A DNA stretch of 64,000 nt from Elusimicrobiota bacterium (GTDB lineage: Bacteria > Elusimicrobiota > Elusimicrobia > UBA1565 > UBA9628). Position 1 is the stretch's first letter; the number at the start of each line of letters is the position of its first letter. The notes beneath the pieces were generated by a model. That model was not told the origin of the DNA, searched no databases, and saw nothing but the letters and a program-made list of their open reading frames with translations. Where the stretch lies: NCBI GenBank assembly GCA_016212855.1, contig JACRDP010000028.1, positions 62,001 through 126,000 of the forward strand, in the 5' to 3' direction. The translations under genes were made by a program, and so were the position numbers. Shown piece after piece: positions 856-60,606 of the stretch.

Positions 856-861
856 TACACT
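856..861 (+). promoter_or_regulatory. -10 box TACACT, 6 nt before the start at 868
   Basis: TACACT is followed by six bases and then ATG. Transcription would begin at or next to the start codon (leaderless type). No good -35 is visible. Confidence 0.5.
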
Positions 862-867
862 CGCGGC

Positions 868-1416
868 ATGATCAAACGCGCCCTCGCCGCCGCCTTGCTG
901 CTCGCCGCGCCGTCCTTCGCGGGCGAGAAAATGACCGTGAAGGACGCGGGCGGCTTCGATCCGGCGGGCCGGACCGTGGAATTTCCGGACCGCTTCGGCT
1001 GGACTTCGTACGAGGCCTCGTTCGCCTTTTCCCTCGGCGACGATAGGACCTTGGAAAATTCGTCCCGGCTCGATCTCATCATCCACCGGCGCGGCGGGGG
1101 AAAGTGGAAGTACTCCTGCCGGGCGTCGTCCGAGGAGTTGTCGGCGAGAGTCGTTCCCCTCGGAGGACGCGTCTCGGTGATCGCCGAGTGCCGCGTGCGG
1201 CCGAAAGCGTTCGCCAAAGCCGTGGATCTCGACGCCGACGACGTCGGCGCGCCGGTATTCGTATTCGAAGCCGTGCTCGAGGGCGGCCAGGTCCGCGCGG
1301 GCGGTCAGCGCGGCCTGCGCTTCCGGCCCGATTCGCCCGTGGCCTCGCTCGACCTGAACCCTTACGCGTCCTCTCCGGACGCGGCCGGACTGGCGCTCGT
1401 CTTTCGCAACGAGTAA
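868..1416 (+). CDS. Secreted protein of unknown function
   Basis: The 182-residue product begins with a short Sec signal peptide (MIKRALAAALLLAAPSFAG, likely cut after SFA or FAG). The mature part is rich in beta-forming segments, has three Cys (one in KYSCRASS, one in IAECRV) and no motif I recognise. The start is the ATG directly after the -10 box at 856-861; no Shine-Dalgarno sequence is present. The gene stands alone between the nitrilase-fold gene and the subtilase. Function unknown; a periplasmic or surface beta-sandwich is the best structural guess. Confidence 0.6.
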   Translation: MIKRALAAALLLAAPSFAGEKMTVKDAGGFDPAGRTVEFPDRFGWTSYEASFAFSLGDDRTLENSSRLDLIIHRRGGGKWKYSCRASSEELSARVVPLGGRVSVIAECRVRPKAFAKAVDLDADDVGAPVFVFEAVLEGGQVRAGGQRGLRFRPDSPVASLDLNPYASSPDAAGLALVFRNE

Positions 1417-1507
1417 GTCCGCTAAGACCGACAGTCCCAATTCGGCCTAGGCCGTTTGCCCGCGGGCCGCTTACCCCATAGCCCCGGCCCTCGACCGGAG
1501 TCTTCCT

Positions 1508-1513
1508 TTATAA
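1508..1513 (+). promoter_or_regulatory. -10 box TATAAT upstream of the large subtilase
   Basis: A perfect TATAAT lies 42 bases before the ATG at 1556. The predicted leader is about 35 nt and contains TAGGAG about 6 bases before the start, so this gene uses a conventional ribosome site, unlike many neighbours. Confidence 0.5.
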
Positions 1514-1555
1514 TCCTCCCAGGCGTAACTCGTCATTTCCGTATAGGAGCCGAAC

Positions 1556-4096
1556 ATGATCAGCGAGAAGAAGGGCGCGAAGAAGACGTTGGCCGTCGCT
1601 CTCATTTTCGCGCTTTTCGCCGGCTCTCCGCTCGACGTCCTCGCTCAGACGCGCGCCGCCGCCGTCACGAACGTTCCCGCCGGGCTCGGCGTCGTCGGCT
1701 CCGTCGGAACGATCGGCACGGCCGTCCCCGGCCTGGCGTTACCGACGGCGATCCTCGCGCCCTCGCTCGCTCCTTCGCTCGTCGCGACGCCCGTCCTCGC
1801 GCCGGCCGCCGTCACGCCGGCGCTCGTGCCCGCTCTCGCCGCTCCCGCCGCGGCCAAGTCCGCCATCACGGCCCAGCCCGCCGAGGTCGCCGCCGCTTTG
1901 GCCGCCGCCAAGTCGCTGCCGGTCGGCTCGCTGCGCGACACCGTGTACTCCTTCGTCGGCGCGATGTCCGACGCCGAGCGCGCGGGCGCGAACACCGCGC
2001 GCATCTTCGATTCCAGCCGCAAGCTCAACGACTCGGACGATGAGGCCGTCGACGGCTCCTCCGAGGAAATGGGCGGAGACGTTCCCGCCGCGGCCCAGGC
2101 CCTGCACAAGGCGTGGGAGCAGGCGTCCAAGCAGCGCGTCGTCGCTTTCGAGGAAGCCGTCAAGCAGGTCAAGGTCGGCCGGGTCGGCATCAAGATCGCC
2201 TACCAGCTGTCCGAGGAAGGCCAGCTCTCCTACGGCGTCGCCTACACGATCGACGACAAGCCGATGAAGAATTCGGAGCTCCCCGCGGCCCTGGCGGCGG
2301 CGGGCGTGACGCCGGCGGCCTGGACCGCCGCGAAGGCCGAGCTCGACGGCGCCGTGCCTGAGCTGGTCAAGCAGCTCGTGTCGACGCTCCAGCAGAACGA
2401 GCGCGAGCACCAGCTCGTCCACAAGAAGATGGACGCGTTCGCCAAGCTCGCGGCGATGAAGTCCGTCAAGGAGACTTTGCAGAAGGGCACCGACCTCCAG
2501 ACCTGGGGCATCCCGGTCTCGATCTCGATCAATCAGAAGACCGGCATGCGCTACGCCCGCACCTACCGCCTCAACGGCATGCCCACCGACTTCGGCTCGG
2601 CGCTGCACGACCTGATCGCGCCGCTCGTCGCGGCCGATCCCAAGTTCCTCGCCAAGATCACCAACGTTCAGCTGCACGAGGCCGCGCAGTACGTCAACGA
2701 CAGTCTTCGCTACTCGCTCGACATGGAGACGCCCGACGGCATGAAGCGCATGCGCCTGAGCGGCGCGCGCGGCATGGGCTACGATTATCCTGAGCCCCGC
2801 AAGGCGCTCCTCGATCTCGCCCGCCGCAAGCTGACCGAGAAGCCCTTGCCGAACGACCGCTACGCGGGCCTCGGCTCGGTTCCGAAGAACCTGCAGCCCG
2901 CTTCGGCGATGATGGAGATCTTCAAGGATCTGATGGAGAAGTTCCAGGAGAAGGCCCAGGCCGGCGCGTCCGCCGAGGAGCTCGCTACGATGCAGTCCCT
3001 GCTCGTCGCGATGCACTCCGCGATCGGCATCCCGGTCCGCACGCCCGACGGCATGACGATGCTGCCCATCGCGCACCGCCAGCTCGTGCCGATCCTGGCC
3101 GAGCTCGCCCGCCGCAACTCGCCGGCCGAAGTGGTCCGCGCGGTCATCCGCACCTTCCCGCTCGGCGAGAGCCTACTGCGCCTGGGCGTGGCCGATCTCT
3201 GGGCCCAGGGCGTCACCGGCAAGGGCATCAAGGTCGCCGTCATCGACAACGGCGTGGATTTCGATCATCCCGACTTCGCCGACATCCAGAACCCGGTCAG
3301 CGAGAACATGACCCGCGACCGCGGCCCGCACACCAAGGGCGGCCACGGCACGCCGATGGCCTCGATCATCCACGCGATCGCCCCCGACGCCGAAATCCAG
3401 AACTACCAGGCCCTGCCCAACACCGACGGCCTCGTCGGCGTCGCGCTGAGCCAGGAAGAGACCGTGCAGGCCGTGCTTAAGGCGATGGACCGCGCCAAGG
3501 CGAACGGCGCCAACATCATCAGCATGAGCCTGGGCTTTCCGATGGCCTACGCCAATGACCCCGTCGCGATGAAGGTCGCCGAGCTCAAGGCCGCCGGCAT
3601 CGTCGTCATCGTCTCGGCCGGCAACGAGGGCGGGGAACTCCCCAAGGGCATGCAGATCCGCTCTCCCGCCTCTTCGCCGGACGCCATCGCGATCGGCGCG
3701 GTGGACTACCACGGCAAGATCGCGTCCTTCTCGTCGGAAGGCTGGGTGTACAACCCGAGCGACGGGACGGCCGCGGAGAAGCCCGACTTTTACGCCCCCG
3801 GCGTGAACATCAAAGCCGCGATGCAGCTGCCCCAGCCGATGTACGGCCAGGAGCCGGTCCCTTACAACCCCGTCTCCGGAACCTCGCCGGCCGCGCCCCA
3901 CGTCACGGGCGTGGTGGCGCTCATGATGGCCGCGGCTCGCGCGGCGGGCGGCGACGTCACGACTCCGGGCATGACCGACGCTGTGCGCGAAGGCCTCATG
4001 GCCGGCGTGAAGCGGGTCGGGCGGCTGCCCGTCGTGTCTGACGCGGTGAAGGCGGTCAAGGCGTTCGTCGACCGCGTGGCCAAGCCGCTCGTCTAG
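1556..4096 (+). CDS. Secreted subtilisin-like serine peptidase (S8) with long N-terminal region
   Basis: The product is 846 residues. A signal peptide (hydrophobic AVALIFALFAGSPL, cut near LAQ) leads into an Ala/Pro/Val-rich linker, then about 400 helical residues without a recognised domain, and an S8 catalytic domain from about 545. The triad is readable: Asp564 in VIDNGVD, His597 in GGHGTP, Ser777 in GTSPAAP, with oxyanion Asn690 in SAGNEGG. It hydrolyses peptide bonds outside the cytoplasm; the helical N-terminus may be a propeptide or a surface-binding region. It differs in architecture from the two tandem subtilases near the right end. It is convergent with the OmpA gene, their stop codons abutting. 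Confidence 0.88.
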   Translation: MISEKKGAKKTLAVALIFALFAGSPLDVLAQTRAAAVTNVPAGLGVVGSVGTIGTAVPGLALPTAILAPSLAPSLVATPVLAPAAVTPALVPALAAPAAAKSAITAQPAEVAAALAAAKSLPVGSLRDTVYSFVGAMSDAERAGANTARIFDSSRKLNDSDDEAVDGSSEEMGGDVPAAAQALHKAWEQASKQRVVAFEEAVKQVKVGRVGIKIAYQLSEEGQLSYGVAYTIDDKPMKNSELPAALAAAGVTPAAWTAAKAELDGAVPELVKQLVSTLQQNEREHQLVHKKMDAFAKLAAMKSVKETLQKGTDLQTWGIPVSISINQKTGMRYARTYRLNGMPTDFGSALHDLIAPLVAADPKFLAKITNVQLHEAAQYVNDSLRYSLDMETPDGMKRMRLSGARGMGYDYPEPRKALLDLARRKLTEKPLPNDRYAGLGSVPKNLQPASAMMEIFKDLMEKFQEKAQAGASAEELATMQSLLVAMHSAIGIPVRTPDGMTMLPIAHRQLVPILAELARRNSPAEVVRAVIRTFPLGESLLRLGVADLWAQGVTGKGIKVAVIDNGVDFDHPDFADIQNPVSENMTRDRGPHTKGGHGTPMASIIHAIAPDAEIQNYQALPNTDGLVGVALSQEETVQAVLKAMDRAKANGANIISMSLGFPMAYANDPVAMKVAELKAAGIVVIVSAGNEGGELPKGMQIRSPASSPDAIAIGAVDYHGKIASFSSEGWVYNPSDGTAAEKPDFYAPGVNIKAAMQLPQPMYGQEPVPYNPVSGTSPAAPHVTGVVALMMAAARAAGGDVTTPGMTDAVREGLMAGVKRVGRLPVVSDAVKAVKAFVDRVAKPLV

Positions 4097-4621
4097 CTAG
4101 TAGACGGTTTCCCAGTCACGGTAGGTGACGCGGAACTCGACGCGCCGGTTCTTGGCGCGGCCCTCGTCCGTGCTGTTGTCCGCGAGCGGCCGCGAGTAGC
4201 CCATGCCCTTGAAGCGGATCGAGGGCGGGGGAACACCCTGCTTGACGAGAAAGCTCTTCACCGAGCGCGCGCGGCGTTCGGAGAGGTCGAGGTTGTACTC
4301 CTCGGTGCCGACGCTGTCGGTGTGCGCGAGACAGATCACCTTGAGCCGCGGGTTCTTCATGAGCAGTTCCGAGACCAGGATCAAGGTCGGGTCCGACTCC
4401 GGGGTGATCTCGTCCTTGTCGAACTCGAACTGGATCTTCGGCAGATTTCCGCTCTCCACCCTCTTCTGGATGTCGGCCAGCTGCTCGCGCGCGCGGCGCT
4501 CCTCGGCCTCGTCGTCGTGCCCGTAGGCTTTCCGGTCCTCGTCGGTGATCAGGATGGTGGGAGGGCCGCTATGGCACGCGGCGGCGGCCGCGAGGACGGC
4601 CGCGCAAAGGAGTTTCTTCAC
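4097..4621 (-). CDS. OmpA/Pal-family outer-membrane lipoprotein
   Basis: The 174-residue product starts with a lipoprotein signal ending at Cys16 (AAAAC), then a charged helical stretch and an OmpA-like peptidoglycan-binding domain (about 60-170) with the family signs HTDSVGTEEYN, LSERRA and GMGYSRP. It anchors the outer membrane non-covalently to peptidoglycan. The start is a GTG at 4621, six bases after a TAAACT -10 box (4628-4633), so the mRNA is predicted to be leaderless. No tol genes lie beside it, so I do not call it pal. Confidence 0.85.
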   Translation of the reverse strand: MKKLLCAAVLAAAAACHSGPPTILITDEDRKAYGHDDEAEERRAREQLADIQKRVESGNLPKIQFEFDKDEITPESDPTLILVSELLMKNPRLKVICLAHTDSVGTEEYNLDLSERRARSVKSFLVKQGVPPPSIRFKGMGYSRPLADNSTDEGRAKNRRVEFRVTYRDWETVY

Positions 4622-4627
4622 GAACCT

Positions 4628-4633
4628 AGTTTA
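4628..4633 (-). promoter_or_regulatory. -10 box TAAACT, 6 nt before the OmpA-gene start
   Basis: On the minus strand TAAACT is followed by six bases and the GTG at 4621. Leaderless-type spacing. Confidence 0.45.
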
Positions 4634-4668
4634 CCCGCGTCCGGACCGCGGCGCAAGGTCGGAAATGT

Positions 4669-4674
4669 TAAAAT
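4669..4674 (+). promoter_or_regulatory. -10 box TAAAAT for tRNA-Pro
   Basis: TAAAAT ends 16 bases before the first base of the tRNA, a suitable distance for a short 5' leader removed by RNase P. No clear -35 hexamer. Confidence 0.4.
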
Positions 4675-4690
4675 CGTCCTGCGGTCTCGA

Positions 4691-4763
4691 CGGGGCGTAG
4701 CTCAATTGGCAGAGCGCGTGGTTTGGGACCACGAGGTTCCGAGTTCGACCCTCGGCGCCCCGA
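4691..4763 (+). tRNA. tRNA-Pro (anticodon TGG)
   Basis: A full cloverleaf can be folded: acceptor CGGGGCG pairs with CGCCCCG, D-stem GCTC/GAGC, anticodon stem CGTGG/CCACG around the loop TTTGGGA (anticodon TGG, reading CCA), and T-stem CCGAG/CTCGG around TTCGACC. The C1-G72 pair with discriminator A73 is the usual identity feature of bacterial tRNA-Pro. CCA is not encoded. Confidence 0.95.
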
Positions 4764-4818
4764 GACCGCAACCGCCCCGGTCTTGACGGCGCGCGGGAAT
4801 CCGTTATCCTTAGGGTTC

Positions 4819-5295
4819 ATGAAAGCGGTTCTGACCCTCGCCCTGGTGCTTGCCGCGCTTCCGGTGTCCGCGCGGCGCTCCGATCCTGTGGAGGAGAGCT
4901 TTAAAGAAGTAGACGTGTCGATCGGCAAGGGCGAGTTCTCCAAGGCGCGGGACAAGCTCGACGAGATCCTGGCCCTGCTCAAGATCGACGATCAGCGCAT
5001 GGTCCGCTATCACGAGCGCACCGGCGCGGCCTGGCTCGGCGAGGGCCGCACCGCCGAGGCGCGGGCCTCGTTCACCGCGGCGCTGAAGGCGACCCAGCGC
5101 CTGAAGGTCACCGGCGATTCCGGGGCGAAAGCCTATACCGGCATGGGGCTGTGCCTGCGCCGCCTGAACAACGACAAATACGCTCTGCGCTTCTTCAAGA
5201 AGGCGCTCACCTTCAATCTCGACGAGGGGACCAAGATGTTCGCGGAGGATCAAATCCGCGAGATCGAGGGGCGGCCGCCTGAGCCCGCGCGCTAG
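4819..5295 (+). CDS. Small secreted TPR-like protein
   Basis: The 158-residue product has a signal peptide (MKAVLTLALVLAALPVSA) and then two or three TPR-like helical hairpins (for example a segment beginning GAAWLGEGRTAEARASF and one beginning KAYTGMGLCLRRLN). TPR folds bind protein partners; this one would act in the periplasm. I chose the ATG at 4819 because it starts the signal peptide and lies eight bases after a TATCCT box (4805-4810); the longer reading from 4723 would run through the tRNA. The following transporter gene seems to overlap its last 17 bases. Confidence 0.7.
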   Translation: MKAVLTLALVLAALPVSARRSDPVEESFKEVDVSIGKGEFSKARDKLDEILALLKIDDQRMVRYHERTGAAWLGEGRTAEARASFTAALKATQRLKVTGDSGAKAYTGMGLCLRRLNNDKYALRFFKKALTFNLDEGTKMFAEDQIREIEGRPPEPAR

Positions 5296-8039: not shown

Positions 8040-8040
8040 G

Positions 8041-8808: not shown

Positions 8809-9266
8809 GCCCCCAGTATAGCCCCGTCTCCGTCGAGCCGCCAGGGGCTGACGAGCGCCACGTTGATCGTAGTCGAAAGCGCTTCCAGCTCTTTGGTGGA
8901 GTGCAACGCGATGCCGCCGCCGCCGGGCTCGGTGAACAAGGTGACGTGGGCCGGCGGGAGGGCCAGGCCGAGACGTGCGCGAAATGTCTCGAGGCAGGGA
9001 ACGGTCACCAGCTCGATGAGGGATCGGCGCGCGTCTTTTCGGATGAACAGATATTTCCCCGAGGGAACGACCTGAAACTCGAGGCCGCGGGCCGCCTCGC
9101 GCAACTCGTCGGCGGTGCGTTGATCCCGGGATTCGGCGATGGTGACGTGCAGCTCGCTCTTCCGGACGAGACGTTCGCCGGCGTGCTCGAGGAGCGGAGG
9201 CAGGCGCGCGGCTCCCGGCAACGGGATGATCGCGGTGCGGCGCTTCTCGTCGATCGACGCCTTCAG
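8805..9266 (-). CDS. 2H phosphoesterase / LigT-like protein, probable CTG start
   Basis: Two HxT motifs, ELHVTIAES (His40) and PAHVTLFTE (His107), in about 153 residues mark the 2H phosphoesterase superfamily (RNA 2',3'-cyclic phosphodiesterase and relatives). The frame is open far upstream through the SPFH gene, but the fold begins at RRTAIIPLPG, and the only fitting start is a CTG at 9266 whose last two bases belong to the SPFH TGA (CTGA overlap). No Shine-Dalgarno is visible, so translational coupling is likely. Its TGA overlaps the next GTG (GTGA). A substrate cannot be inferred. Confidence 0.6.
   Translation of the reverse strand: MKASIDEKRRTAIIPLPGAARLPPLLEHAGERLVRKSELHVTIAESRDQRTADELREAARGLEFQVVPSGKYLFIRKDARRSLIELVTVPCLETFRARLGLALPPAHVTLFTEPGGGGIALHSTKELEALSTTINVALVSPWRLDGDGAILGA
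8815..8820 (-). promoter_or_regulatory. -10 box TATACT, 6 nt before the GTG at 8808
   Basis: TATACT followed by GGGGGC and the GTG start. It lies within the end of the 2H gene and would give an internal leaderless promoter for the last two genes of this operon. Confidence 0.45.
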
Positions 9267-10168
9267 GCGCTCGGGGGCGGACCGCGGCGCGCCGCGATCA
9301 TCTGCTGAAGCATGTCCGAGCCGGGAGGCACCATGGTGACCTCGGCTCCGCCCTCGAGTATTTTCTGCACCTCGAGGATCTCGAACATCGCCTGCAGAAT
9401 GTCGGGCGCGGCCGAGATCGCCTTGAGCGCCGTGCCGACGATCTTGGGACGCAGGGCGGCGGCCTCGGCGAAGGCGATGGCGGCCTGGCGCTGGGCGGTG
9501 CTGGCGATGATGTTGACCTGGTTCTCGCCGTCCTGCTTGATGGCGGCGGTGACCTGGCGAAGGCGGTTCACGACCTTCTCCTCGATCTGCTTGATCATGC
9601 GCGGATCGCGCAGGTGGACCTTGCGGATGTAGACGGAGCCGAGCTTGTAGCCCCACTCGTGGGACTTGGGCGAGACTTCTTCGCGTACGACCTGGCTCAT
9701 CTGGTGGCGCGAGCCGAGCATGGCCGCGAGCTTCATGTTGGAGAGCGAGCGCACGGTGGCGTTGCTCACGTTGGCCGCGAGCGAGCCTCTGGGGTCCGCG
9801 TTCTTGAACAGGAAGGCGACCGGATCGGAGACGTACATCTCGTACCAAATGCCGATGCCCATCGGCGCGCCTTCCTCCGAGTTGACGGGCTCCGAGCGGC
9901 GGTAGACTTGGTCCATGCGCATGTCGAGCGTGTAGCAGGATCCGATCCAGTTTACGATCAGCGCGGCGGGCCCCAGGCGAAACCACAGGAAGTGGATGCC
10001 GGGCTCGGTGATCGTCTCGAGGACGTTGCCGAACAGCACGAAGACCTTGGACGTGCCCTCGTGGACGATGGTGTAGAAGCCGAAGAAGCGCATGAAGCCG
10101 AACAGGACCGGCACGGCGATCCACAGCCCGAAGAACGTCGTGACGAAGGACAGGGTAAAGGGGCTCAT
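9263..10168 (-). CDS. SPFH/Band 7 membrane protein (second of pair)
   Basis: A 301-residue protein with one N-terminal hairpin or transmembrane segment (SPFTLSFVTTFFGLWIAVPVLFG), then a Band 7/SPFH domain (about 40-230) and a helical tail (AIAFAEAAALRPK, then KILEGGAEVTM), as in prohibitin/flotillin/HflC-type scaffolds of membrane microdomains. I chose the ATG at 10168 (MSPFTL), one base after the preceding stop; a longer frame to 10201 would overlap the partner gene. The pair resembles HflK/HflC in layout, but no ftsH is nearby. Confidence 0.8.
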   Translation of the reverse strand: MSPFTLSFVTTFFGLWIAVPVLFGFMRFFGFYTIVHEGTSKVFVLFGNVLETITEPGIHFLWFRLGPAALIVNWIGSCYTLDMRMDQVYRRSEPVNSEEGAPMGIGIWYEMYVSDPVAFLFKNADPRGSLAANVSNATVRSLSNMKLAAMLGSRHQMSQVVREEVSPKSHEWGYKLGSVYIRKVHLRDPRMIKQIEEKVVNRLRQVTAAIKQDGENQVNIIASTAQRQAAIAFAEAAALRPKIVGTALKAISAAPDILQAMFEILEVQKILEGGAEVTMVPPGSDMLQQMIAARRGPPPSA

Positions 10169-10169
10169 C

Positions 10170-11180: not shown

Positions 11181-11252
11181 ATATCTCCTGATGCGGCCTT
11201 GTTATTCAATCAAATTGCGGACCGCGCGGATGGCTTCGGGCGCGAAGCCCTC

Positions 11253-11280
11253 TTGAGTTTCCCGTGAATCCGGCTACCCT
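11253..11280 (+). promoter_or_regulatory. Sigma70-type promoter TTGAGT-N16-TACCCT
   Basis: TTGAGT (11253-11258) and TACCCT (11275-11280) stand 16 bases apart upstream of the repeat-protein gene; a GGGAGG ribosome site follows at 11291-11296. Confidence 0.5.
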
Positions 11281-11302
11281 ATCGGGATCGGGGAGGTCTC
11301 AC

Positions 11303-11638
11303 ATGAAACCCTCTTTGCTCATCCTCGCTGTTTTTCTGGCCGGCGCGCTGCCGTCGCGCGCGGAGGAAAAAAATGGCCAGGGCGCTTCGGACGGCACAGG
11401 TGAGAACGGGCTTCTGCCGGGGCGCCGGACGGAGCGCCGGAAGGAGCGCCGAACGGAGCAGCGCAAAACTCGCCGGGGCGCGCGCACCGGACGCGCCGAG
11501 CGCGACGAGAGAGACGAGCGCGATGAGCGCGGCACGCGTCAGGTCGAGGGAATCCGCGATCGCACGCGTGACAAGCGCCAGGTCGAGGGTATCCGCGATT
11601 CTGAACGGGACAAGCGACAGGTTGATGGGATACGATAG
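11303..11638 (+). CDS. Small secreted, highly charged protein with 13-residue repeats
   Basis: The 111-residue product has a signal peptide (MKPSLLILAVFLAGALPSRA) and a mature part made almost only of Arg, Lys, Glu, Asp and Gly. The C-terminus holds three 13-residue units built on RQVEGIRD (RQVDGIR in the last), encoded by about 39-base DNA repeats at 11529-11635, and an earlier (DER)n run. Start is ATG 11303 with GGGAGG at 11291. The two charge signs alternate, suggesting an extended or single-helix structure, perhaps binding polyanions or metals. No family recognised. Confidence 0.55.
   Translation: MKPSLLILAVFLAGALPSRAEEKNGQGASDGTGENGLLPGRRTERRKERRTEQRKTRRGARTGRAERDERDERDERGTRQVEGIRDRTRDKRQVEGIRDSERDKRQVDGIR
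11529..11635 (+). repeat. Three tandem ~39-bp coding repeats
   Basis: The units begin near CAGGTCGAGGG, CAGGTCGAGGG and CAGGTTGATGG, each encoding RQV(E/D)GIR. The copies differ by several substitutions, so the array is not freshly expanded. Confidence 0.6.
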
Positions 11639-17222: not shown

Positions 17223-17228
17223 ATTCTA
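17223..17228 (-). promoter_or_regulatory. -10 box TAGAAT, 6 nt before sdhC
   Basis: TAGAAT, CGGGCC, ATG on the minus strand. Divergent from the promoter at 17299. No convincing -35. Confidence 0.5.
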
Positions 17229-17298
17229 TCACGGCATTGATGGGTGAAAGTTGATCCAGGTCAACGAACGAGCACTGGCCCGGTACTTCCAAAAACGC

Positions 17299-17304
17299 TA
17301 ATCT
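17299..17304 (+). promoter_or_regulatory. -10 box TAATCT, 7 nt before 17312
   Basis: TAATCT followed by GGACCTT and ATG; leaderless spacing. Confidence 0.45.
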
Positions 17305-19036: not shown

Positions 19037-19677
19037 GGGTCAAGGCGGAGCGCGCCAAGCGCCTGCTCAAGGGCCTGCGCAAGCTGTATCCGGACGCGCA
19101 CTGCGAGCTCGATTTTAAGACACCGTACGAGCTGCTCTTCGCGGTGATCCTATCGGCGCAGTGCACCGATGTGCGGGTGAACGCGACGACCAGGGTTCTC
19201 TTCAAGCGCTACAAGACGCTCGACGATTACGCCGAGGCCGATTCGGATGAGCTCGAGGCGATCGTGCGGTCTTGCGGCTTTTACCGGATGAAGGCCAAGG
19301 CCATCATCGAGACCGCGCGCGCCGTGCGCGACTGGCACGGGGGGAAGGTTCCCGACACGATGGAGAAGCTGCTCGCGTTGCGCGGCGTCGCGCGCAAGAC
19401 GGCGAACGTGGTGCTGGGCGAGATCTATGGAAAATCCGAAGGCGTAGTCGTCGACACGCACATGAAGCGCCTGTGCTTCCGCTTCGGACTCACCGACGAG
19501 GAGGATCCCGTGAAGGTCGAGCGGGACTTGGCCGACATCGTCCCGCGCAGGGACTGGGTGTTCTGGTCGCACGCGGTGATCTGGCACGGGCGGCGCGTGT
19601 GCAAGGCCGCGAATCCGCAGTGCGGCTCCTGCGCGCTGAGGGCCGACTGCCCGCAACGCGGCGTGGACGCGGACTAG
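19033..19677 (+). CDS. nth: Endonuclease III (DNA glycosylase/AP lyase)
   Basis: A 214-residue protein with the helix-hairpin-helix LRGVARKTANVVL containing catalytic Lys122, catalytic Asp141 in VVVDTHM, and the C-terminal [4Fe-4S] loop with Cys190, 197, 200 and 206. It removes oxidised pyrimidines and nicks the abasic site in base-excision repair. Its start overlaps the preceding stop (ATGA), so it may be translated by coupling. Its stop overlaps that of the convergent broken papain-like gene. Confidence 0.95.
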   Translation: MRVKAERAKRLLKGLRKLYPDAHCELDFKTPYELLFAVILSAQCTDVRVNATTRVLFKRYKTLDDYAEADSDELEAIVRSCGFYRMKAKAIIETARAVRDWHGGKVPDTMEKLLALRGVARKTANVVLGEIYGKSEGVVVDTHMKRLCFRFGLTDEEDPVKVERDLADIVPRRDWVFWSHAVIWHGRRVCKAANPQCGSCALRADCPQRGVDAD

Positions 19678-20092
19678 AACGTCTCGGTCTCGGACGGGAA
19701 CAGCACGGCTTCGACGGAACCGATCCGGCACAGCTGATTCTCGAGCACGTGACGGATGTCGCCGTCGACGAAATTCCCTTCCATGAGCCCGCATTTGAGG
19801 CCGGTCCGGCAGACATCCGAATGCGCGTCGCCGGTCAGAATCGTCCTTTGAACGAACAGATCCTCTTCTGAGAGACGGTGGCCGTAGCCGCGCGAATAGG
19901 CCGCCTCGAGCATCGCGACGGCGGCGAAGGCGTGGCAGGAGCCGATGTTCGACTGGTCTCGCTTGGGCGGATCCATCCATTGGCCGCTCGTGTCGGGATT
20001 TTTCGACTCGCGGCGGCGCTTGTCGGGAGGGCCGTCCGTGGCTCCGGCTGCGGCGGCGAGGAAGAGGACGGCGAGGACGAGGGGGGCCTCAT
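19674..20092 (-). pseudogene. Papain-like (C1A) peptidase remnant, frameshifted at a poly-C tract
   Basis: The frame ending at 19674 encodes DQSNIGSCHAFAAVAMLEAAY, the Gln and catalytic Cys region of papain-like peptidases, but stops about 85 residues after the Cys, before any catalytic His or Asn. No start codon exists in that frame. An ATG at 20092, six bases after a TATACC box, opens another frame: ATG-AGG followed by six C. One extra C would join it to a good signal peptide (M-R-P-P then LVLAVLFLAAAAGA) and then the Cys domain. So I read one gene with a one-base deletion, or a sequencing error, and a missing C-terminal half. Confidence 0.5.
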
Positions 20093-20107
20093 GGCCCCGG
20101 TATAACC

Positions 20108-24181: not shown

Positions 24182-24187
24182 ATTCTA
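24182..24187 (-). promoter_or_regulatory. -10 box TAGAAT, 7 nt before the amidase gene
   Basis: TAGAAT, TCCGGCC, ATG on the minus strand, within the 41-base gap after the Mur ligase gene. Leaderless-type spacing. Confidence 0.45.
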
Positions 24188-27897: not shown

Positions 27898-27903
27898 TAT
27901 ACT
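27898..27903 (+). promoter_or_regulatory. -10 box TATACT, 8 nt before the porin GTG
   Basis: TATACT, eight bases, GTG at 27912. It overlaps the minus-strand TATAAC box of the ferredoxin gene, so the divergent promoters share DNA. Confidence 0.45.
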
Positions 27904-31401: not shown

Positions 31402-31597
31402 GCGATCATTATGTCCCCGTCCGAGCCCCCTGTCAAGGCGGCCTCCGCTCGACTCATTCGCGCGGGCCGGACGGCGAAAGGTCATCATCCGCCGGGGACG
31501 CGCGGCATTGAGCCGCGCTCGGTGGGTCTCGCGGCAATGACGACCGCGGCCGCGGACCCGACGCCCCGGCCTATATAATTCTGTAATGGGCAGCATC

Positions 31598-31603
31598 TAT
31601 AAT
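31598..31603 (+). promoter_or_regulatory. -10 box TATAAT, 7 nt before 31611
   Basis: Perfect TATAAT, seven bases, ATG. A second perfect TATAAT at 31574-31579 stands 24 bases upstream and could give a short leader instead. Confidence 0.5.
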
Positions 31604-34446: not shown

Positions 34447-34452
34447 TAAGCT
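34447..34452 (+). promoter_or_regulatory. -10 box TAAGCT, 7 nt before 34460
   Basis: TAAGCT, CCGATCC, ATG. Leaderless spacing. Confidence 0.35.
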
Positions 34453-36278: not shown

Positions 36279-37346
36279 TTAGGGCCGGTCCCCGCCGGTC
36301 TTCTTGGGGGCGAACACCTCTTCCGCCTTGGGCAGCGCCGTGTTCTGCAGGTATTGCTTGGGCAGGCAGTTCTCCACGAACTCGTGGTCTTCCGCCGTCA
36401 GGCAGCGCGGATGGAACCCGGCGAGGTAGTCGTTGGCCAGCATCTTGGCGCGGATCGCGGCGACCGGCTCCTCGCGCACGTTGCCGAAGGAGATGTGCAT
36501 GTAGGGGCAGGGGATCACGTCGCCGAACGGCGTGAAATACAGCTTCTCCGTTGCCGCGCCGCAGCCGAGCTGCCAATAGTTGGTTTCAAAATCACGGCGG
36601 ACGTGCGGCGTGCTCGCCACGATATGATTGAGCTCCGCGAGGTCGGCGGCGGTCAGCATGCAGTCCATGTTCTCCGCCCATTCTCCGATGGGCGAGGCCA
36701 TGCTGAGATTAACGAGGATGTTTTCCTGACGCGCCCACTCGATGATCTTGTGAAACCCCGGCGTGTGTATGTTGTAATGCGACACCGTAGGCACGGCGGC
36801 GACTTTCAGCCCCGCGTCTTGGGCGATGCGAAACGCAGTCATCGTCTTGTCGAATGCTCCGGGCATGCCCCGGAACCGGTCGTGCTCCGCCGCCTCCCCG
36901 CTGTCCACGGACATCTGAACGATGTCCACGCCGGCGGCCTTCAACCGGCGGGCCATTTCCGGCGTCATGAGGGTGCCGTTCGTGCAGACGATGATGAGCA
37001 TCCGGCCGGGATCGGCGAGCCGGATCAGGTCGAACAGGCGGGGATACGCCAGCGGTTCGCCGCCGGTAAATCCGATCGCGATCGCTCCCAGATCGGCGCA
37101 TTGTCCCATGACGCTTTCCCATTCCTGATCGGACAGTTCCGATCCGCCCTTAAATTTCAGATTTTCGGCGAAGCAGTGGGAGCAACGCAGATTGCACGCC
37201 AGCCCGACGTTGACGTCGATGTAGCGAAGGGGCTGGCGGCGCCCGGTGAGCAGATCCAGGTAGGCGCGCGCGATCCTCGCCGCGAGACGGGGCTTGCGCC
37301 AGTTGACGGCATAACGGAAGTTGTAGACGAATCGGCTGACCTTCAT
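36279..37346 (-). CDS. Radical SAM/SPASM-like protein
   Basis: A 355-residue cytoplasmic enzyme: the SAM-cluster motif CNLRCSHC lies about residue 53, followed by GFTGGEPLAYP and VCTNGTLMT of the radical SAM barrel, and a C-terminal segment with Cys in LGCGAATEKLYFTPFGDVIPCPYM and PRCLTAEDHEFVENC that resembles an auxiliary-cluster (SPASM) region. Such proteins modify peptides or cofactors; no precursor peptide is obvious nearby. A perfect TATAAT (37353-37358) lies six bases before the ATG. It is convergent with the SGNH gene. Confidence 0.8.
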   Translation of the reverse strand: MKVSRFVYNFRYAVNWRKPRLAARIARAYLDLLTGRRQPLRYIDVNVGLACNLRCSHCFAENLKFKGGSELSDQEWESVMGQCADLGAIAIGFTGGEPLAYPRLFDLIRLADPGRMLIIVCTNGTLMTPEMARRLKAAGVDIVQMSVDSGEAAEHDRFRGMPGAFDKTMTAFRIAQDAGLKVAAVPTVSHYNIHTPGFHKIIEWARQENILVNLSMASPIGEWAENMDCMLTAADLAELNHIVASTPHVRRDFETNYWQLGCGAATEKLYFTPFGDVIPCPYMHISFGNVREEPVAAIRAKMLANDYLAGFHPRCLTAEDHEFVENCLPKQYLQNTALPKAEEVFAPKKTGGDRP

Positions 37347-37352: not shown

Positions 37353-37358
37353 ATTATA
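37353..37358 (-). promoter_or_regulatory. -10 box TATAAT, 6 nt before the radical SAM gene
   Basis: TATAAT, GCACGC, ATG on the minus strand. Leaderless spacing with a perfect -10. Confidence 0.5.
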
Positions 37359-37471
37359 TTGATTTGACGGCGACGATGGGCTGCTTGCGAGCCGTCCCGA
37401 GTTCCTGCCTGACAGGGCGCTGTCGGGGATCGGATCGTTGAAGAAGCTGAAGTGAAATGCTAACGTGATTT

Positions 37472-44989: not shown

Positions 44990-44995
44990 ATTATA
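44990..44995 (-). promoter_or_regulatory. -10 box TATAAT, 8 nt before 44981
   Basis: TATAAT, eight bases, ATG on the minus strand. Its upstream region is the terminator stem at 45003-45021. Confidence 0.5.
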
Positions 44996-46078: not shown

Positions 46079-46084
46079 TAAAAT
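46079..46084 (+). promoter_or_regulatory. -10 box TAAAAT, 6 nt before 46091
   Basis: TAAAAT, AAAACG, ATG. Leaderless-type promoter for the six-gene run to 49791. Confidence 0.5.
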
Positions 46085-49977: not shown

Positions 49978-49983
49978 TAAAAT
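49978..49983 (+). promoter_or_regulatory. -10 box TAAAAT, 8 nt before 49992
   Basis: TAAAAT, AGTCCTGC, ATG. Leaderless-type spacing. Confidence 0.45.
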
Positions 49984-49991
49984 AGTCCTGC

Positions 49992-52238: not shown

Positions 52239-52250
52239 ACAGGAGATCAC

Positions 52251-55365: not shown

Positions 55366-55390
55366 ATCAGTCGATAAACCTCGTAAGCGT

Positions 55391-55410
55391 AACTATCCTC
55401 AGGGATAGTT
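55391..55410 (+). repeat. Hairpin between purB and the methyltransferase gene
   Basis: AACTATCC-TCAG-GGATAGTT, a perfect 8-bp stem in the 102-base gap. No T-run. It may be a weak terminator or mRNA stabiliser. Confidence 0.45.
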
Positions 55411-55467
55411 GAAAGGACGATAAGAGGGGCGGTCGCGTGACTGAACCCTGTCGCAAGGAGAATGGAC

Positions 55468-56703: not shown

Positions 56704-56704
56704 G

Positions 56705-57973
56705 ATGACGGAGCCCCATCTGGAGGAGGACCGCTCCTCCAAGTTCTCGCCGTCGAAGCTCTCGGTCTATCAGAACTGTCCCAAGCGCTATCAATATCGC
56801 TACGTCGACAAGATCTCGCGCCGGCGCAAGACGCCCGAGACCGTAGTCGGCGTGGCGGTGCACTCGGCGTTCGAGGAGCTCTACGCCCTCGTGACGGGCG
56901 GGAAGGTTCCGGGGCTGCCCGAGCTGCAGGAGATTTACGAGCGCGAGCTCGCGGCGGAGTGGGACGAGTCCGTCGTGGAGAAGGACGCGCGTTTCGTCAA
57001 GGACGACTGGAAAAAAGTCGGCCGTGACTGCGTGGAACTGTACTACAACGCCCACCACCCGTTTTCCGCCGACCGCACTGTGGCGATCGAGAAGCGCGTC
57101 GGTTTTCCGATTACGGTGGACGGGCATGAATACCGCATCGAGGGCTTCGTGGACCGGCTCGCGCTGGCGCCGGACGGCGCCTTCGAGATCGTCGACTACA
57201 AGACCGCCAAGTCCTTGCCGAATCAGGAGCACGCGGACGAGGACTGGCAGCTCGCTCTCTATGAACTGGCGGTGCGCCGCGAGTGGCCGGACACGAAGGA
57301 GGTGCGGCTGAAGTGGCATTACGTCCGCCACGGTAAGACCCTCGTGTCTGTTCGAGACGAGGCGGCCCGCGCCAAGCTGCTCGCCGACGTGACCGCTTTG
57401 ATCTCGACGATCAAGCACGACCATGAGTTCGCGACGAAGCCTTCGACGCTGTGCGACTGGTGCGAGTACCGCGACCTGTGCCCGCTGTTCGCCGACGCCG
57501 TGCGCGTCGCGGCGCTGCCTCCGGAGGAACGCGCCAGGGATGGGGGAGTCAAGCTCGTCGCGCGCTACGCCGAGATCGAGGATCGTCGCAAGCGCCTCAA
57601 GGACGACCTGAAGGTGATCGAGGCCGAGCGCGAGAAGGTCGAGGACGAGCTCGCCGCGCTGGCCGAAAAGGAAAAGCTCGCGGTGATCGCCGGCGAGCGC
57701 GCCTCGGCGTCCGTGACCGTCAAGGTCGAGACGCATCTGCCCACCAAGACGGGCGAGCCGGACAAGCATGTGGAGCTCGAGAGAGAGGTCCGCAAGACCG
57801 GGCTATGGGAAGACGTGGCTAAGCTCGACGGTCACGCGCTGCTGGAAGGCTTGAGGACGCACCGTTGGACGGGGGAACTGCTCGGCGCGGCGGAGAGCTT
57901 GGTGGAGCGCTTCGGACGGCCCGAGACGAAGCGGACCGTGCGCTTAAAGCGGAAAGTCGAAGAGGACGATTAG
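56705..57973 (+). CDS. RecB-type PD-(D/E)XK nuclease with iron-sulfur cluster
   Basis: A 422-residue protein. LSVYQNCPKRYQYRYV is the first cluster Cys, VGVAVHSAFEELY holds the conserved His, IEGFVDRLAL and FEIVDYKTAKS the catalytic Asp and Lys, QLALYELA the Q motif, and CDWCEYRDLC the other three Cys, as in AddB/Cas4-type Fe-S nucleases. A coiled coil (about 280-325) and a beta-rich tail follow. It probably trims DNA in repair. No AddA/Cas genes are near. It starts one base after the methyltransferase. Confidence 0.85.
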   Translation: MTEPHLEEDRSSKFSPSKLSVYQNCPKRYQYRYVDKISRRRKTPETVVGVAVHSAFEELYALVTGGKVPGLPELQEIYERELAAEWDESVVEKDARFVKDDWKKVGRDCVELYYNAHHPFSADRTVAIEKRVGFPITVDGHEYRIEGFVDRLALAPDGAFEIVDYKTAKSLPNQEHADEDWQLALYELAVRREWPDTKEVRLKWHYVRHGKTLVSVRDEAARAKLLADVTALISTIKHDHEFATKPSTLCDWCEYRDLCPLFADAVRVAALPPEERARDGGVKLVARYAEIEDRRKRLKDDLKVIEAEREKVEDELAALAEKEKLAVIAGERASASVTVKVETHLPTKTGEPDKHVELEREVRKTGLWEDVAKLDGHALLEGLRTHRWTGELLGAAESLVERFGRPETKRTVRLKRKVEEDD

Positions 57974-58362
57974 GGCTGCTCGCCGATTGATCCGACGTCG
58001 GCGGGCGGGGCGAAGCGCCCGGTGACGGAATAAATCTCGTCGTCCTTCGGCGGAGTGCGGAATTGAGAGGCCGGGGCGGTCGCGGAGATGTGCAGGCGGC
58101 CCGGCTTCCCGTTCACGATCTCGTACAGCGTCAGGCTCACTGTGGGGATCTTCTCCGCGTCGACGTAGCGATACCCGTTGTAGATCGAGCGAGCCACGCC
58201 CGAGACGGTGATCTCTTTGCCGTAATACCGCGCCGGATCGGCGGAGAGGGTCGCGATGTTCAAGCCGCGGCCGCCGAACGCCTGGGCCAACTCAAGCAGG
58301 GTGAACACCACGACGGCGGACAGGCTTCCGATCACGGCGGCGCGGCGGGCGGGACGATCCAT
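57970..58362 (-). CDS. Secreted/anchored OB-fold protein
   Basis: A 130-residue protein with an N-terminal hydrophobic segment (AAVIGSLSAVVVFTLLELAQAF) and an OB-fold-like region (DPARYYGKEITVSGVARSIY, DDEIYSVTGRFAPP). It looks like a small periplasmic OB protein of the type also seen in CcmE relatives, but without the heme His. GGAGGA precedes the ATG. It overlaps the nuclease stop by 4 bases tail to tail. Confidence 0.65.
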   Translation of the reverse strand: MDRPARRAAVIGSLSAVVVFTLLELAQAFGGRGLNIATLSADPARYYGKEITVSGVARSIYNGYRYVDAEKIPTVSLTLYEIVNGKPGRLHISATAPASQFRTPPKDDEIYSVTGRFAPPADVGSIGEQP

Positions 58363-58419
58363 GGGGGTTCCTCCGAGGGCGCGCCTCAGTCTTCGCGCGG
58401 TCGACCGGGACTTGCGTCC

Positions 58420-58611
58420 CTAATCGTACGCTTTATCGGATCCGCCGCCCACGCCGAGCTGTACCGCGAGGCTCATCCAGTCGGTTTTAAGCCGGTCATG
58501 CTGGGCCTCGAGTTCGTTCCAACCGCGATCGAACTCGAGCGGCTTAGCGCCTTTGGCCTTGCGGGACGAACCCTTGTGGTGACGGGTCGATTTCGCCGGT
58601 GATTTCTTCAT
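58420..58611 (-). CDS. Small basic protein of unknown function
   Basis: A 63-residue product: basic head (KKSPAKSTRHHKGSSRKAKGAK) followed by a helix (ELEAQHDRLKTDWMSLAVQLGV). A TATACT box (58627-58632) lies 15 bases before the ATG and GAGG between them, supporting expression. The head could bind nucleic acid. It lies between the TPR and OB-fold genes, in the same orientation. Confidence 0.5.
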   Translation of the reverse strand: MKKSPAKSTRHHKGSSRKAKGAKPLEFDRGWNELEAQHDRLKTDWMSLAVQLGVGGGSDKAYD

Positions 58612-58643
58612 GTCGTCCTCGTTCGCAGTATAGCCCCGGCATC

Positions 58644-59858
58644 CTATTTCGTCAACGGTTTATTTGCGCCGAGACGCTCGTACAGCAAGCCGATGCGCTT
58701 CTGGTCGTCCGGATCGGCCTTCAGGCGCTGAGCCTCGGCGAGCTCGAAGAGGGCCGTCGCGCGGTCGCCGGTGTCCGCGGCGAAATAGGCGCGGTCGATG
58801 CGCAGCTGCGGATCGCGAGACTCCTCCCGGATCAGGTCGTCGATCAGCTCGCGCGCCTTCGCGTGTTCGGAGAGGTCTTCGTAGATGAGCGCGGCGCGCT
58901 TCCGGTCCTGGAGGTCGGGGTTGCGGCGCAGCGCTTCGGCCAAAGCGTCGAGCGCTTCTTCACGCGCGCCGCGCCGGGCGGACAGGTAAGCCAGGTCGAG
59001 CCGGACCGAGGGGTGCTTGGGAAAATCGCGTATCAGCGCGGCGACGCAGTCGAAGCCTTCGTCGAAGGCGCGCAGTTCCAGATACAGCGCGGCCATGCGG
59101 CGGCGCTCCTCGAACGAGGGCTTGAGCTTCTCGGCCGCGGCGAGAGAAGCGAGCGCCGCGCCGCGCCGGCCCGCGCGTGCGTCCAGGACCGCGCGGTCGT
59201 AGAGCGACTGCGGCTTTTCGGGCACTTGCTCGAGCAGGCTCCGCGCCCGGTCGAACGCGCCGAGGTCGCGGTACATCGCGGCCATGCGCCTCTTGTCGTC
59301 CGGGCCCGGGTCGAGCTCGGCCGCCTTCGCGAGCTGCTTGAAGGCCACGGGCTTTTCGCCGCTTTGCGTCGCAAGCGAGGCGCGGTCGAGTCGCACGCTG
59401 AGATCGCGAGGATTCTCTTGGATAAGGCCGTCGAGGAGGACGCGGGCCGGGGCGTAGTCCTTGAGGTCCTGATGGAGGAAAGCCATGCGCTGCCGGTCCA
59501 CGGCGTTCGGCTTGAGCTTTTCTCCCTCGGCCAGCGCGGCGAGCGACGATTCGCGGTCGCCGGCCATCGCGATGACGCAGGCCAGGTACAGGCGCAAGCG
59601 CGGCTCAGCGGGACGTTCCTTTATAAGGGTTTCCAGCAGGGCCTGCGATTCGTTGAAATCCTTGAGATCCTGGTAGAGCAAAGCGATGCGCTCGCGGTCG
59701 TCGTCGTTCTGCTTGAGCTTCCGGGCCTCGGCGATCAACGCATAGGCCGCTTTGCGGTCGCCGGCGCGCACCGCGGCCGTCGCGCGTTCGACCGAGGGGG
59801 AGGGGAGGTCGGCTCGTGCGGTCAGCGCCGCGAGTAGGAGCGCCGCGACGACCCGCAT
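58644..59858 (-). CDS. Exported TPR-repeat protein
   Basis: A 404-residue protein with a signal peptide (MRVVAALLLAALTARA) and five or six similar units of about 66 residues, each with two TPR-like hairpins (for example ALLYQDLKDFNESQALLETLI, then RLYLACVIAMAGDRES). The regular spacing gives a long superhelix for binding a protein partner. The ATG at 59858 shares one base with the ankyrin-gene stop (TGATG). It belongs to the ankyrin operon. Confidence 0.75.
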   Translation of the reverse strand: MRVVAALLLAALTARADLPSPSVERATAAVRAGDRKAAYALIAEARKLKQNDDDRERIALLYQDLKDFNESQALLETLIKERPAEPRLRLYLACVIAMAGDRESSLAALAEGEKLKPNAVDRQRMAFLHQDLKDYAPARVLLDGLIQENPRDLSVRLDRASLATQSGEKPVAFKQLAKAAELDPGPDDKRRMAAMYRDLGAFDRARSLLEQVPEKPQSLYDRAVLDARAGRRGAALASLAAAEKLKPSFEERRRMAALYLELRAFDEGFDCVAALIRDFPKHPSVRLDLAYLSARRGAREEALDALAEALRRNPDLQDRKRAALIYEDLSEHAKARELIDDLIREESRDPQLRIDRAYFAADTGDRATALFELAEAQRLKADPDDQKRIGLLYERLGANKPLTK

Positions 59859-60571
59859 CAGGGGAGGAGGGCGGCGGCGTCCGCGTGCTCGCGGCTGAGG
59901 GCGATCTCTTTCGCCGTACGCCCATCGCCGGACTTGAGCGCGGGATCCGCCTTGGCCGCGAGTAAAGCGCTCACCGTTTCGCTCCAGCCGCCGTGCGCGG
60001 CCCACATCAAGGCGGTGTAGCCGAGCTTGTCTTTGCTGTCGGTCTTGGCCTTCGCGGCGGCGAGCAGGTTGACCGCGGCCGTCCGACCGACCTGGGCCGC
60101 GCGGATCAGGGCGGTGAGCCCGTCGGCGTCGCGCGCGTTGACCTTGGCGCCGCAGGCTATTAAAGCCGTGAGCGCTGACGTGGAAATCGAAGACGCGTAG
60201 GCGATCGCCGGCACCCCCTTCTCATCCTTGGCCGAGCAGTCCAGACCTTTCGCGGCGAGCAAGGCGATGTTCGCGCCTCGCCCGCCCTTGGCGGCCTCGA
60301 CGATCGCGTTCCAGCCGGCCGGCTCCTTGGGCGCGACGTCCGCGCCCGCTTCGAGCAAGGCCTTGAGCGTCGCGGCGTCTCCGCGCCCCGCGGCCCACAT
60401 CGCCGCCGTCCAGCCGTATTTGTCCTTGGCTCCGAGCGCCGCGCCGGCGGCGAGCTGCGCCTTGAGACTCGCGAGGTCGCCGGCTTTGACGGCGTCCACC
60501 AAGGGCGGATCGGCCTGCGCGCGCGCGAACACGGGGCACAGCAGCAAGGCGAGAGCGAGTCGGCTGGTCAT
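59858..60571 (-). CDS. Exported ankyrin-repeat protein
   Basis: A 237-residue protein with a signal peptide (MTSRLALALLLCPVFARA) and about six ankyrin repeats (GWTAAMWAAGRGDAATLKALLEAGAD; DGLTALIRAAQVGRTAAVNLLAAA; GYTALMWAAHGGW). It binds another protein outside the cytoplasm. ATG 60571 follows a TATACT box by six bases; that promoter also has TTGACG 17 bases further up. Both genes of this operon are exported repeat proteins. Confidence 0.85.
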   Translation of the reverse strand: MTSRLALALLLCPVFARAQADPPLVDAVKAGDLASLKAQLAAGAALGAKDKYGWTAAMWAAGRGDAATLKALLEAGADVAPKEPAGWNAIVEAAKGGRGANIALLAAKGLDCSAKDEKGVPAIAYASSISTSALTALIACGAKVNARDADGLTALIRAAQVGRTAAVNLLAAAKAKTDSKDKLGYTALMWAAHGGWSETVSALLAAKADPALKSGDGRTAKEIALSREHADAAALLP

Positions 60572-60577
60572 GAGCAC

Positions 60578-60606
60578 AGTATAAGCCGCCGTCGTTCCGC
60601 CGTCAA
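60578..60606 (-). promoter_or_regulatory. Promoter TTGACG-N17-TATACT, 6 nt before the ankyrin gene
   Basis: On the minus strand TTGACG (60606-60601), 17 bases, TATACT (60583-60578), six bases, ATG. A full sigma70-type promoter that must start transcription at the start codon. Confidence 0.7.

What the first reader, a model, noticed from the sequence alone, without database searches (positions are those of the whole stretch)
856..60583. Leaderless promoters at most operon heads
At about 19 first genes a -10-like hexamer stands 5-8 bases before the start codon, so the mRNA would begin at or next to the start codon. Seen with 6 nt: 868 (TACACT), 4621 (TAAACT), 8808 (TATACT), 17216 (TAGAAT), 20092 (TATACC), 31401 (CATAAT), 37346 (TATAAT), 46091 (TAAAAT), 60571 (TATACT). 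With 7: 17312, 24174, 31611, 34460. With 8: 4819, 11645, 27912, 44981, 49992. With 5: 37472. Genes with a longer leader (1556, 11180, 11303, 27852, 60762) do carry Shine-Dalgarno sites, while the leaderless ones do not. Leaderless mRNA is well known from Deinococcus and Actinobacteria; such a dense set here suggests it is a main mode in this lineage.
Basis: partly seen in the sequence, partly recalled or inferred. Interest (0 to 1): 0.8.

Follow-up and report, generated by a model that had tools for sequence, protein, structure and literature searches.

The report
Leaderless promoters abutting start codons
In this uncultured bacterium of the phylum Elusimicrobiota about a third of operons appear to start transcription right at the first gene's start codon, so the messenger RNA has no leader and no ribosome-binding site; this is a known mode in other bacteria, here documented for a lineage where we found no earlier report.

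Summary
All 19 listed hexamers sit where stated; 17 are exact TANNNT and none of the 19 starts has a Shine-Dalgarno (SD) site. In 753 kb of the same genome outside the window, TANNNT with a 6-nt spacer stands before 36 of 224 operon heads, against 2.3 (maximum 8) in 500 shuffles. De novo motif search finds tGcTAtAAT peaking at -12. A -35 TTG at 17 bp and a G before the -10 mark sigma70-type promoters. At sdhC (17216) 10 of 16 genus members have TAGAAT 6-7 nt before ATG without SD; the other six have it 39-44 nt away, with AAGGAG. An FNR/CRP-type box stays 22 nt from TAGAAT in 13 of 16. 'Most operon heads' is too strong: about a third of heads, a sixth to a fifth of genes. The phylum is Elusimicrobiota; the signal is strong in the window's order, weaker in the rest of its class, near background in other classes. 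It is a known kind in a lineage where we found no report. No RNA 5' ends prove it.

The parts
856..861 (+). -10 TACACT, spacer 6, ATG 868
4628..4633 (-). -10 TAAACT, spacer 6, GTG 4621 (OmpA family protein)
4805..4810 (+). -10 TATCCT, spacer 8, ATG 4819; -35-like TTGACG 16 bp upstream (4783-4788)
8815..8820 (-). -10 TATACT, spacer 6, GTG 8808
11631..11636 (+). -10 TACGAT, spacer 8, ATG 11645
17223..17228 (-). -10 TAGAAT of sdhC, spacer 6, ATG 17216; conserved in the genus
17251..17264 (-). FNR/CRP-type box (TTGACCTGGATCAA on the minus strand), centred at -41.5 from the A of ATG 17216, 22 nt before the -10
17299..17304 (+). -10 TAATCT, spacer 7, ATG 17312 (solute-binding protein)
20099..20104 (-). 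TATACC, spacer 6, ATG 20092; doubtful, only an 85-aa ORF in another frame from the called gene
24182..24187 (-). -10 TAGAAT, spacer 7, ATG 24174 (amidase); a box at spacer 6-7 in 14 of 16 genus loci, own included; 41 nt behind a same-strand gene
27898..27903 (+). -10 TATACT, spacer 8, GTG 27912
31408..31413 (-). -10 CATAAT, spacer 6, ATG 31401; perfect -35 TTGACA at 17 bp (31431-31436)
31598..31603 (+). -10 TATAAT, spacer 7, ATG 31611
34447..34452 (+). -10 TAAGCT, spacer 7, ATG 34460 (40 nt behind a same-strand gene)
37353..37358 (-). -10 TATAAT, spacer 6, ATG 37346 (radical SAM protein)
37461..37466 (+). -10 TAACGT, spacer 5, ATG 37472
44990..44995 (-). -10 TATAAT, spacer 8, ATG 44981 (27 nt behind a same-strand gene)
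46079..46084 (+). -10 TAAAAT, spacer 6, ATG 46091
49978..49983 (+). -10 TAAAAT, spacer 8, ATG 49992
60578..60583 (-). -10 TATACT, spacer 6, ATG 60571; -35 TTGACG at 17 bp (60601-60606)

Best explanation
The hexamers are -10 elements of ordinary sigma70-type promoters placed so that RNA polymerase starts at, or one or two bases before, the A or G of the start codon. The mRNAs are leaderless and would be translated without an SD contact, from a 5'-terminal AUG or GUG. The same cell uses SD initiation for in-operon genes and for heads with a leader, and the 16S rRNA tail seen in two genomes of the family is normal. About a third of operon heads are of the leaderless kind. At least one gene, sdhC, moves between the two modes while keeping its promoter. 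Shown here: the signal, its place, its promoter character, missing SD, conservation in two genes and switching in one. Inferred: the actual 5' ends and translation from them.
For: Out-of-sample enrichment. Sharp peak at spacer 6 at heads, near none in operons or at in-gene ATGs. De novo motif tGcTAtAAT at -12, best of 60 random starts. TA...T scores highest of 32 A/T patterns (70 against 8.4 background; median pattern 11.5); TTG at the 17-bp spacing in 10 of 76 against 0-2 at the 16 other spacings tried; G two bases before the hexamer in 49 of 76. SD 9 of 76 at these heads, 48 of 180 at other heads, 132 of 322 in operons, 402 of 3784 at in-gene ATGs. C just before the start in 27 of 42 spacer-6 cases against 77 of 180 other heads. 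sdhC: 10 of 10 genus members with spacer 6-7 (own included) lack SD; 6 of 6 with the same TAGAAT 39-44 nt away have AAGGAG. FNR/CRP-type box exactly 22 nt from TAGAAT in 13 of 16, both modes; centre -41.5 from the A of ATG in the window, the place of class II activator sites in E. coli (recalled). Four Crp-type HTH matches in the genome. Amidase: a box at spacer 6-7 in 14 of 16 genus loci. Anti-SD CCTCC in the 30 of 30 16S loci fetched from the phylum and in G028 and G034 of the family.
Against: No RNA data. Start codons were called by coding score and some are wrong, e.g. the caller put a TTG at L142:9480 where TATACT-N6-ATG at 9516-9530 looks like the start. In the six leadered sdhC cases the start was taken as the one preceded by AAGGAG; several have other in-frame starts upstream. 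Stretches of some relatives show no excess (G028 1 of 44 heads, G027 1 of 31, G040 2 of 28, G048 0 of 26, G049 3 of 27), although whole-genome counts are raised in all of these but G049. Most -35 elements are weak: 16 of 76 have 4 or more of 6 matches at 16-18 bp, against 6 and 7 in two controls. The pyrimidine before the start is not seen at spacer 7 (8 of 16).
Confidence: 0.93

Rival explanations
1. The A/T-rich hexamer is a translation signal (an unstructured or A/T-rich non-SD ribosome site, as in Bacteroidetes) and not a promoter; transcription begins further upstream.
For: A/T content is raised just before these starts, and these starts lack SD.
Against: TA...T is far more enriched than most A/T patterns of the same kind; the -35 TTG at 17 bp and the G before the hexamer are promoter features; in-operon genes, which would also need a translation signal, lack it (4 of 322 at -12); at sdhC the hexamer keeps its distance to the FNR/CRP-type box, not to the start codon.
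Confidence: 0.04
2. The start codons are mis-assigned and the true starts lie downstream, so the mRNAs have short leaders.
For: Coding-score start calls are imprecise; the caller itself put 31611 and 27912 downstream.
Against: A miscalled start would blur the peak, but it is one to three bases wide. In the amidase the 6-7 nt distance from box to ATG is kept in 14 of 16 genus loci while the N-terminal length varies.
Confidence: 0.02
3. The hexamers are chance A/T words picked by a reader in a GC-rich genome.
Against: Out-of-sample count 36 against 2.3 expected; whole-genome pattern TANAMT-N6-ATG 131 against 10 for the pattern read backwards and 16 with a 12-nt spacer.
Confidence: 0.01

Closest known systems
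Leaderless genes with a TA-like (TANNNT) signal in Actinobacteria and Deinococcus-Thermus (Zheng et al. 2011, PMC3160421, passages; Deinococcus-Thermus study 2025, PMC12340547, passages and two sections)
   Same: TANNNT about 12 bp before the start, no SD, high-GC genome, coexistence with SD genes, leaderless/SD replacement between orthologs.
   Different: Another phylum (Elusimicrobiota). Here about a third of heads and about 17-20% of genes by my estimate, near the 19.2% average that PMC3160421 gives for Actinobacteria and below its 39.4% for Deinococcus-Thermus; methods differ. A G two bases before the hexamer is marked here and was not compared with theirs.
Bacterial leaderless group of GeneMarkS-2 (Lomsadze et al. 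2018, not read; as quoted in passages of PMC9581028)
   Same: Leaderless transcription in part of the transcripts; predicted for 21.6% of bacterial species, in up to 40% of transcripts.
   Different: Whether any Elusimicrobiota genome was placed in that group was not seen.

Membership tests
Bacterial leaderless genes driven by a -10 next to the start codon | TANNNT enriched about 12 bp upstream of start codons | tested here: met
   42 of 256 heads at -12; 36 of 224 out of sample against 2.3 expected
Bacterial leaderless genes driven by a -10 next to the start codon | No SD before these starts, SD elsewhere in the same genome | tested here: met
   9 of 76 against 48 of 180 other heads and 132 of 322 in operons; in-gene control 402 of 3784
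Bacterial leaderless genes driven by a -10 next to the start codon | Confined to first genes of operons | tested here: met
   Corrected fractions 34% of heads, 16% of genes with 25-59 nt gaps, 3% of in-operon genes; motif at any offset from -40 on: 49%, 45%, 5.8%, and 0.0% of 946 in-gene ATGs. The genes with 25-59 nt gaps may hold internal promoters.
Bacterial leaderless genes driven by a -10 next to the start codon | The hexamer is a sigma70-type promoter element | tested here: met
   -35 TTG at 17 bp in 10 of 76, G before the -10 in 49 of 76; most individual -35 elements are weak; sequence evidence only
Bacterial leaderless genes driven by a -10 next to the start codon | Mapped RNA 5' ends at the start codon | not testable with these tools
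   No RNA data; the -41.5 FNR/CRP-type box at sdhC is indirect support
A/T-rich non-SD ribosome sites (Bacteroidetes type) | A/T-rich signal without promoter character, at in-operon genes too | tested here: not met

The most novel reading that the evidence does not exclude
Leaderless initiation is an old, inherited trait of the class that holds this genome (probably Elusimicrobia), strongest in its mostly GC-rich order. Genes there switch between leaderless and SD-led forms by changing the distance between the start codon and an otherwise unchanged promoter, so that even sister species (G004 and G018 at sdhC) differ in the initiation mode of the same gene. That would make the genus a natural series of before-and-after pairs for how leaderless genes are gained and lost.
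Probability: 0.6. Interest if true: 0.55.

Novelty: new member of a known kind. Interest (0 to 1): 0.42.

Why it matters
It adds an Elusimicrobiota order, for which our searches found no report, to the groups where leaderless mRNA looks like a main mode. Gene callers tuned to SD sites may misplace starts in such genomes. The sdhC series in one genus shows the same promoter with and without a leader, which makes gain and loss of leaderless initiation testable.

Tried and rejected
A +4 A after the start codon looked like a leaderless mark (64%) but is as common at in-operon genes, so it was dropped. A first motif search drifted onto the start codon because its window included it; it was repeated with the start excluded. 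The radical SAM gene at 37346 was tried for orthologs, but outside the own genome the best match by E-value has 29% identity, so its 30 loci were not used. GcvP was searched to name the lineage; the 80 records kept (56-65% identity) came from many phyla and did not settle it, and the tool may leave out near kin. A 16S search in the own genome found none. Pilin-signal counts (11) were not diagnostic.

The reversed-pattern control is not matched for ATG frequency, so a 12-nt spacer was used for the clade statistics. That control also catches promoters with short leaders, so the ratios are probably low. The 80 genomes were picked by me from those that searches had given handles; they are not a random draw.

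Rows dropped: 695 genes were called; 662 had a called start and 60 nt upstream inside the stretch; 10 of these had no upstream neighbour and were not classed.

Literature: 'leaderless' with 'Elusimicrobi' gave 2 papers. Of PMC10783764 I saw passages and the section with its class table, which gives SD percentages of 46 for Elusimicrobia and 43 for Endomicrobia; the other paper was seen as a listing. 'Elusimicrobi' with 'Shine-Dalgarno' gave 5 and with 'transcription start site' 4, seen as listings. PMC3160421 and PMC9581028: passages. PMC12340547: passages and two sections; its figure S7 and tables, which cover many phyla, were not seen. PMC4505116: whole text; listings. No statement of leaderless genes in Elusimicrobiota was found; the word does not occur in the main text of PMC3160421, but its 'Other Bacteria' row may include one.
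Full report
WHAT WAS CHECKED. The window is bases 62001-126000 of contig C23 of an unnamed draft genome, 2.5 Mb in 30 contigs, 72.66% complete. All 19 listed hexamers are at the stated places with the stated spacers; 17 are exact TANNNT; none of the 19 starts has GGAG, GAGG or AGGA at -18 to -4; the five genes said to have longer leaders all have an SD. A gene caller written for this purpose uses coding score and start-codon type only, no upstream signal. It picked the same start for 15 of the 19. Three listed genes (24174, 34460, 44981) lie 27-41 nt behind a same-strand gene and are not clear operon heads; 20092 is doubtful, because the called gene there is in another frame.

IS IT MORE THAN CHANCE. 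Of 695 genes called in 817 kb (window included), 662 could be used and 256 are heads: divergent from the upstream gene, or 60 or more nt behind a same-strand gene. TANNNT starts at -12 (spacer 6) in 42 of 256 heads, at -13 in 16 and at -14 in 12; other positions hold about 1.5% each. In-operon genes have 4 of 322 at -12, in-gene ATG codons 8 of 3784. Outside the window alone the count is 36 of 224, against a mean of 2.3 (sd 1.5, maximum 8) in 500 dinucleotide shuffles; at spacers 5-8 it is 64 of 224 against 9.3 (sd 3.1, maximum 20). A motif search from 60 random starts over -40 to the start codon, best fit kept, finds tGcTAtAAT in half of the heads, with about 69% of its mass at offsets -15 to -11.

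HOW COMMON. From that fit about 35% of heads are leaderless. A second count, which lets the start be any in-frame ATG or GTG near the called one and subtracts shifted-spacer controls, gives 34% of heads, 16% of genes with 25-59 nt gaps and 3% of in-operon genes. Over all genes this is, by my arithmetic from these two calls, about 17 to 20%. So 'most operon heads' is too strong.

IS IT A PROMOTER. Among 32 A/T patterns of three fixed letters, TA...T is the most enriched at these positions (70 against a background of 8.4; the next two, T...AT and T..A.T, also fit TATAAT; median 11.5). In the 76 heads with a box at spacers 5-8, TTG stands at exactly 17 bp upstream of the hexamer in 10, and in 0-2 at each of the 16 other spacings tried. 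G is two bases before the hexamer in 49 of 76. Most single -35 elements are weak: 16 of 76 match TTGACA in 4 or more of 6 letters at 16-18 bp, against 6 and 7 in two controls. The base before the start codon is C in 27 of 42 spacer-6 cases and in 77 of 180 other heads, as expected at a transcription start (a pyrimidine before a purine; recalled); at spacer 7 the pyrimidine share is 8 of 16. No TTG start occurs among the 76; the other heads have 20 of 180, though some of these are miscalls. SD is at background at these heads (9 of 76), raised at other heads (48 of 180) and highest in operons (132 of 322); in-gene ATGs give 402 of 3784.

CONSERVATION AND SWITCHING. Loci of sdhA from 30 genomes, the own one included, carry the sdhC start. 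In the genus 16 of 17 are readable. Ten, own included, have TAGAAT 6-7 nt before ATG and no SD; six have the same TAGAAT 39-44 nt before ATG, and all six have AAGGAG. In these six the start was taken as the one preceded by AAGGAG; several have other in-frame starts upstream, but in four of the six the protein alignment with the window's SdhC begins at that ATG. In 13 of the 16 an FNR/CRP-type box (TTGAY-N4-RTCAA; recalled motif) lies exactly 22 nt before TAGAAT, in 8 leaderless and 5 leadered forms. In the window its centre is at -41.5 if the A of ATG is +1 (the locus rows of the same call use a formula half a base off and print -41.0), which is where class II activator sites lie in E. coli (recalled); in the three species with spacer 7 it is one base further. 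The box occurs three times in the 817 kb sample, and the genome has four Crp-type HTH matches. In other genera of the family the picture is mixed: some leaderless, some with SD, some neither. On an SdhA tree (30 rows, unclear rows counted as not leaderless) the leaderless label needs at least four changes on well-supported branches, and the sister pair G004 (leaderless) and G018 (SD) differ. The amidase gene (start 24174) has a box at spacer 6-7 in 14 of 16 genus loci, own included, while its N-terminal length varies; G004 and G011 showed none.

WHICH LINEAGE. A genome of the same phylum, G079, has a contig of 1,588,979 bases, the exact chromosome length printed for Endomicrobium proavitum, phylum Elusimicrobia (PMC4505116, whole text). 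A genome of the same class, G089, has 1,643,562 bases, which I recall as Elusimicrobium minutum. So the phylum is Elusimicrobiota and the class probably Elusimicrobia. The 16S tail has CCTCC in the 30 of 30 loci fetched (68 of 149 genomes of the phylum had a 16S match) and in two genomes of the window's family. The own genome gave no 16S.

HOW WIDE. TANAMT-N6-ATG against TANAMT-N12-ATG in 80 genomes of the phylum that I picked (table). The window's order (34 genomes): 4453 against 1113, ratio 4.00, range 1.7-13.1, 33 of 34 significant at 0.05/80. Rest of the class (26): 3583 against 2170, ratio 1.65, 13 of 26 significant. Other classes (20): 4543 against 4199, ratio 1.08, 2 of 20 significant. 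The own genome has 131 against 16. Base composition differs between these groups, so ratios are not fractions of genes. In 23 named genomes of other phyla, judged against the reversed pattern only, 5 reach a ratio of 3 or more; one, an uncultured proteobacterium (67 against 4 in 7.2 Mb), exceeds the own genome's ratio (131 against 10 in 2.5 Mb) though not its density. In stretches of up to 80 kb from 20 relatives, TANNNT at spacers 5-8 is at least twice background in 12 of 15 genomes of the order (not in G028, G027, G040) and in 2 of 5 others of the class, on two boxes each.

WHAT IT IS. The best reading is leaderless transcription from sigma70-type promoters, beside ordinary SD initiation. 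This is known: 207 of 953 bacterial genomes in PMC3160421 (passages), and 21.6% of bacterial species according to PMC9581028 (passages). Replacement of leaderless by SD-led forms between orthologs is also reported in PMC3160421. New here, as far as my searches show, is the lineage and the sdhC series. RNA 5' ends remain the missing proof.

Noticed in passing
window 17251-17264: FNR/CRP-type palindrome upstream of sdhC at a fixed 22 nt from its -10 in 13 of 16 genus members, suggesting oxygen- or cNMP-type control of succinate dehydrogenase / fumarate reductase.
   Followed up: yes
window 4691-4763: A tRNA-Pro (TGG) gene lies in the 197-bp gap between two divergent leaderless genes (4621 and 4819); the -10 of 4819 begins 42 bases after the tRNA end.
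   Followed up: no
window 19674-20092: The listed start 20092 opens an 85-aa ORF in another frame from the called gene 19674-19976: a frameshift, a small overlapping gene or a false start.
   Followed up: no
L142:9516-9530: TATACT-N6-ATG, a likely leaderless start that the start caller missed (it chose TTG 9480), downstream of the second FNR/CRP-type box (L142:9443).
   Followed up: partly
G071:C32:38975-40944 and G062:C24:8548-10242: Unusually long 16S rRNA matches (1,970 and 1,695 nt against about 1,520) in family f16 of the phylum, perhaps with insertions.
   Followed up: no
G202 (genome of L023, uncultured proteobacterium): 67 matches to TANAMT-N6-ATG against 4 to the reversed pattern: another lineage worth testing for leaderless genes.
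   Followed up: no
G011:C1:747571-749506: sdhA of this single-contig genome is split over several pieces with in-frame TGA stops, probably long-read errors.
   Followed up: no
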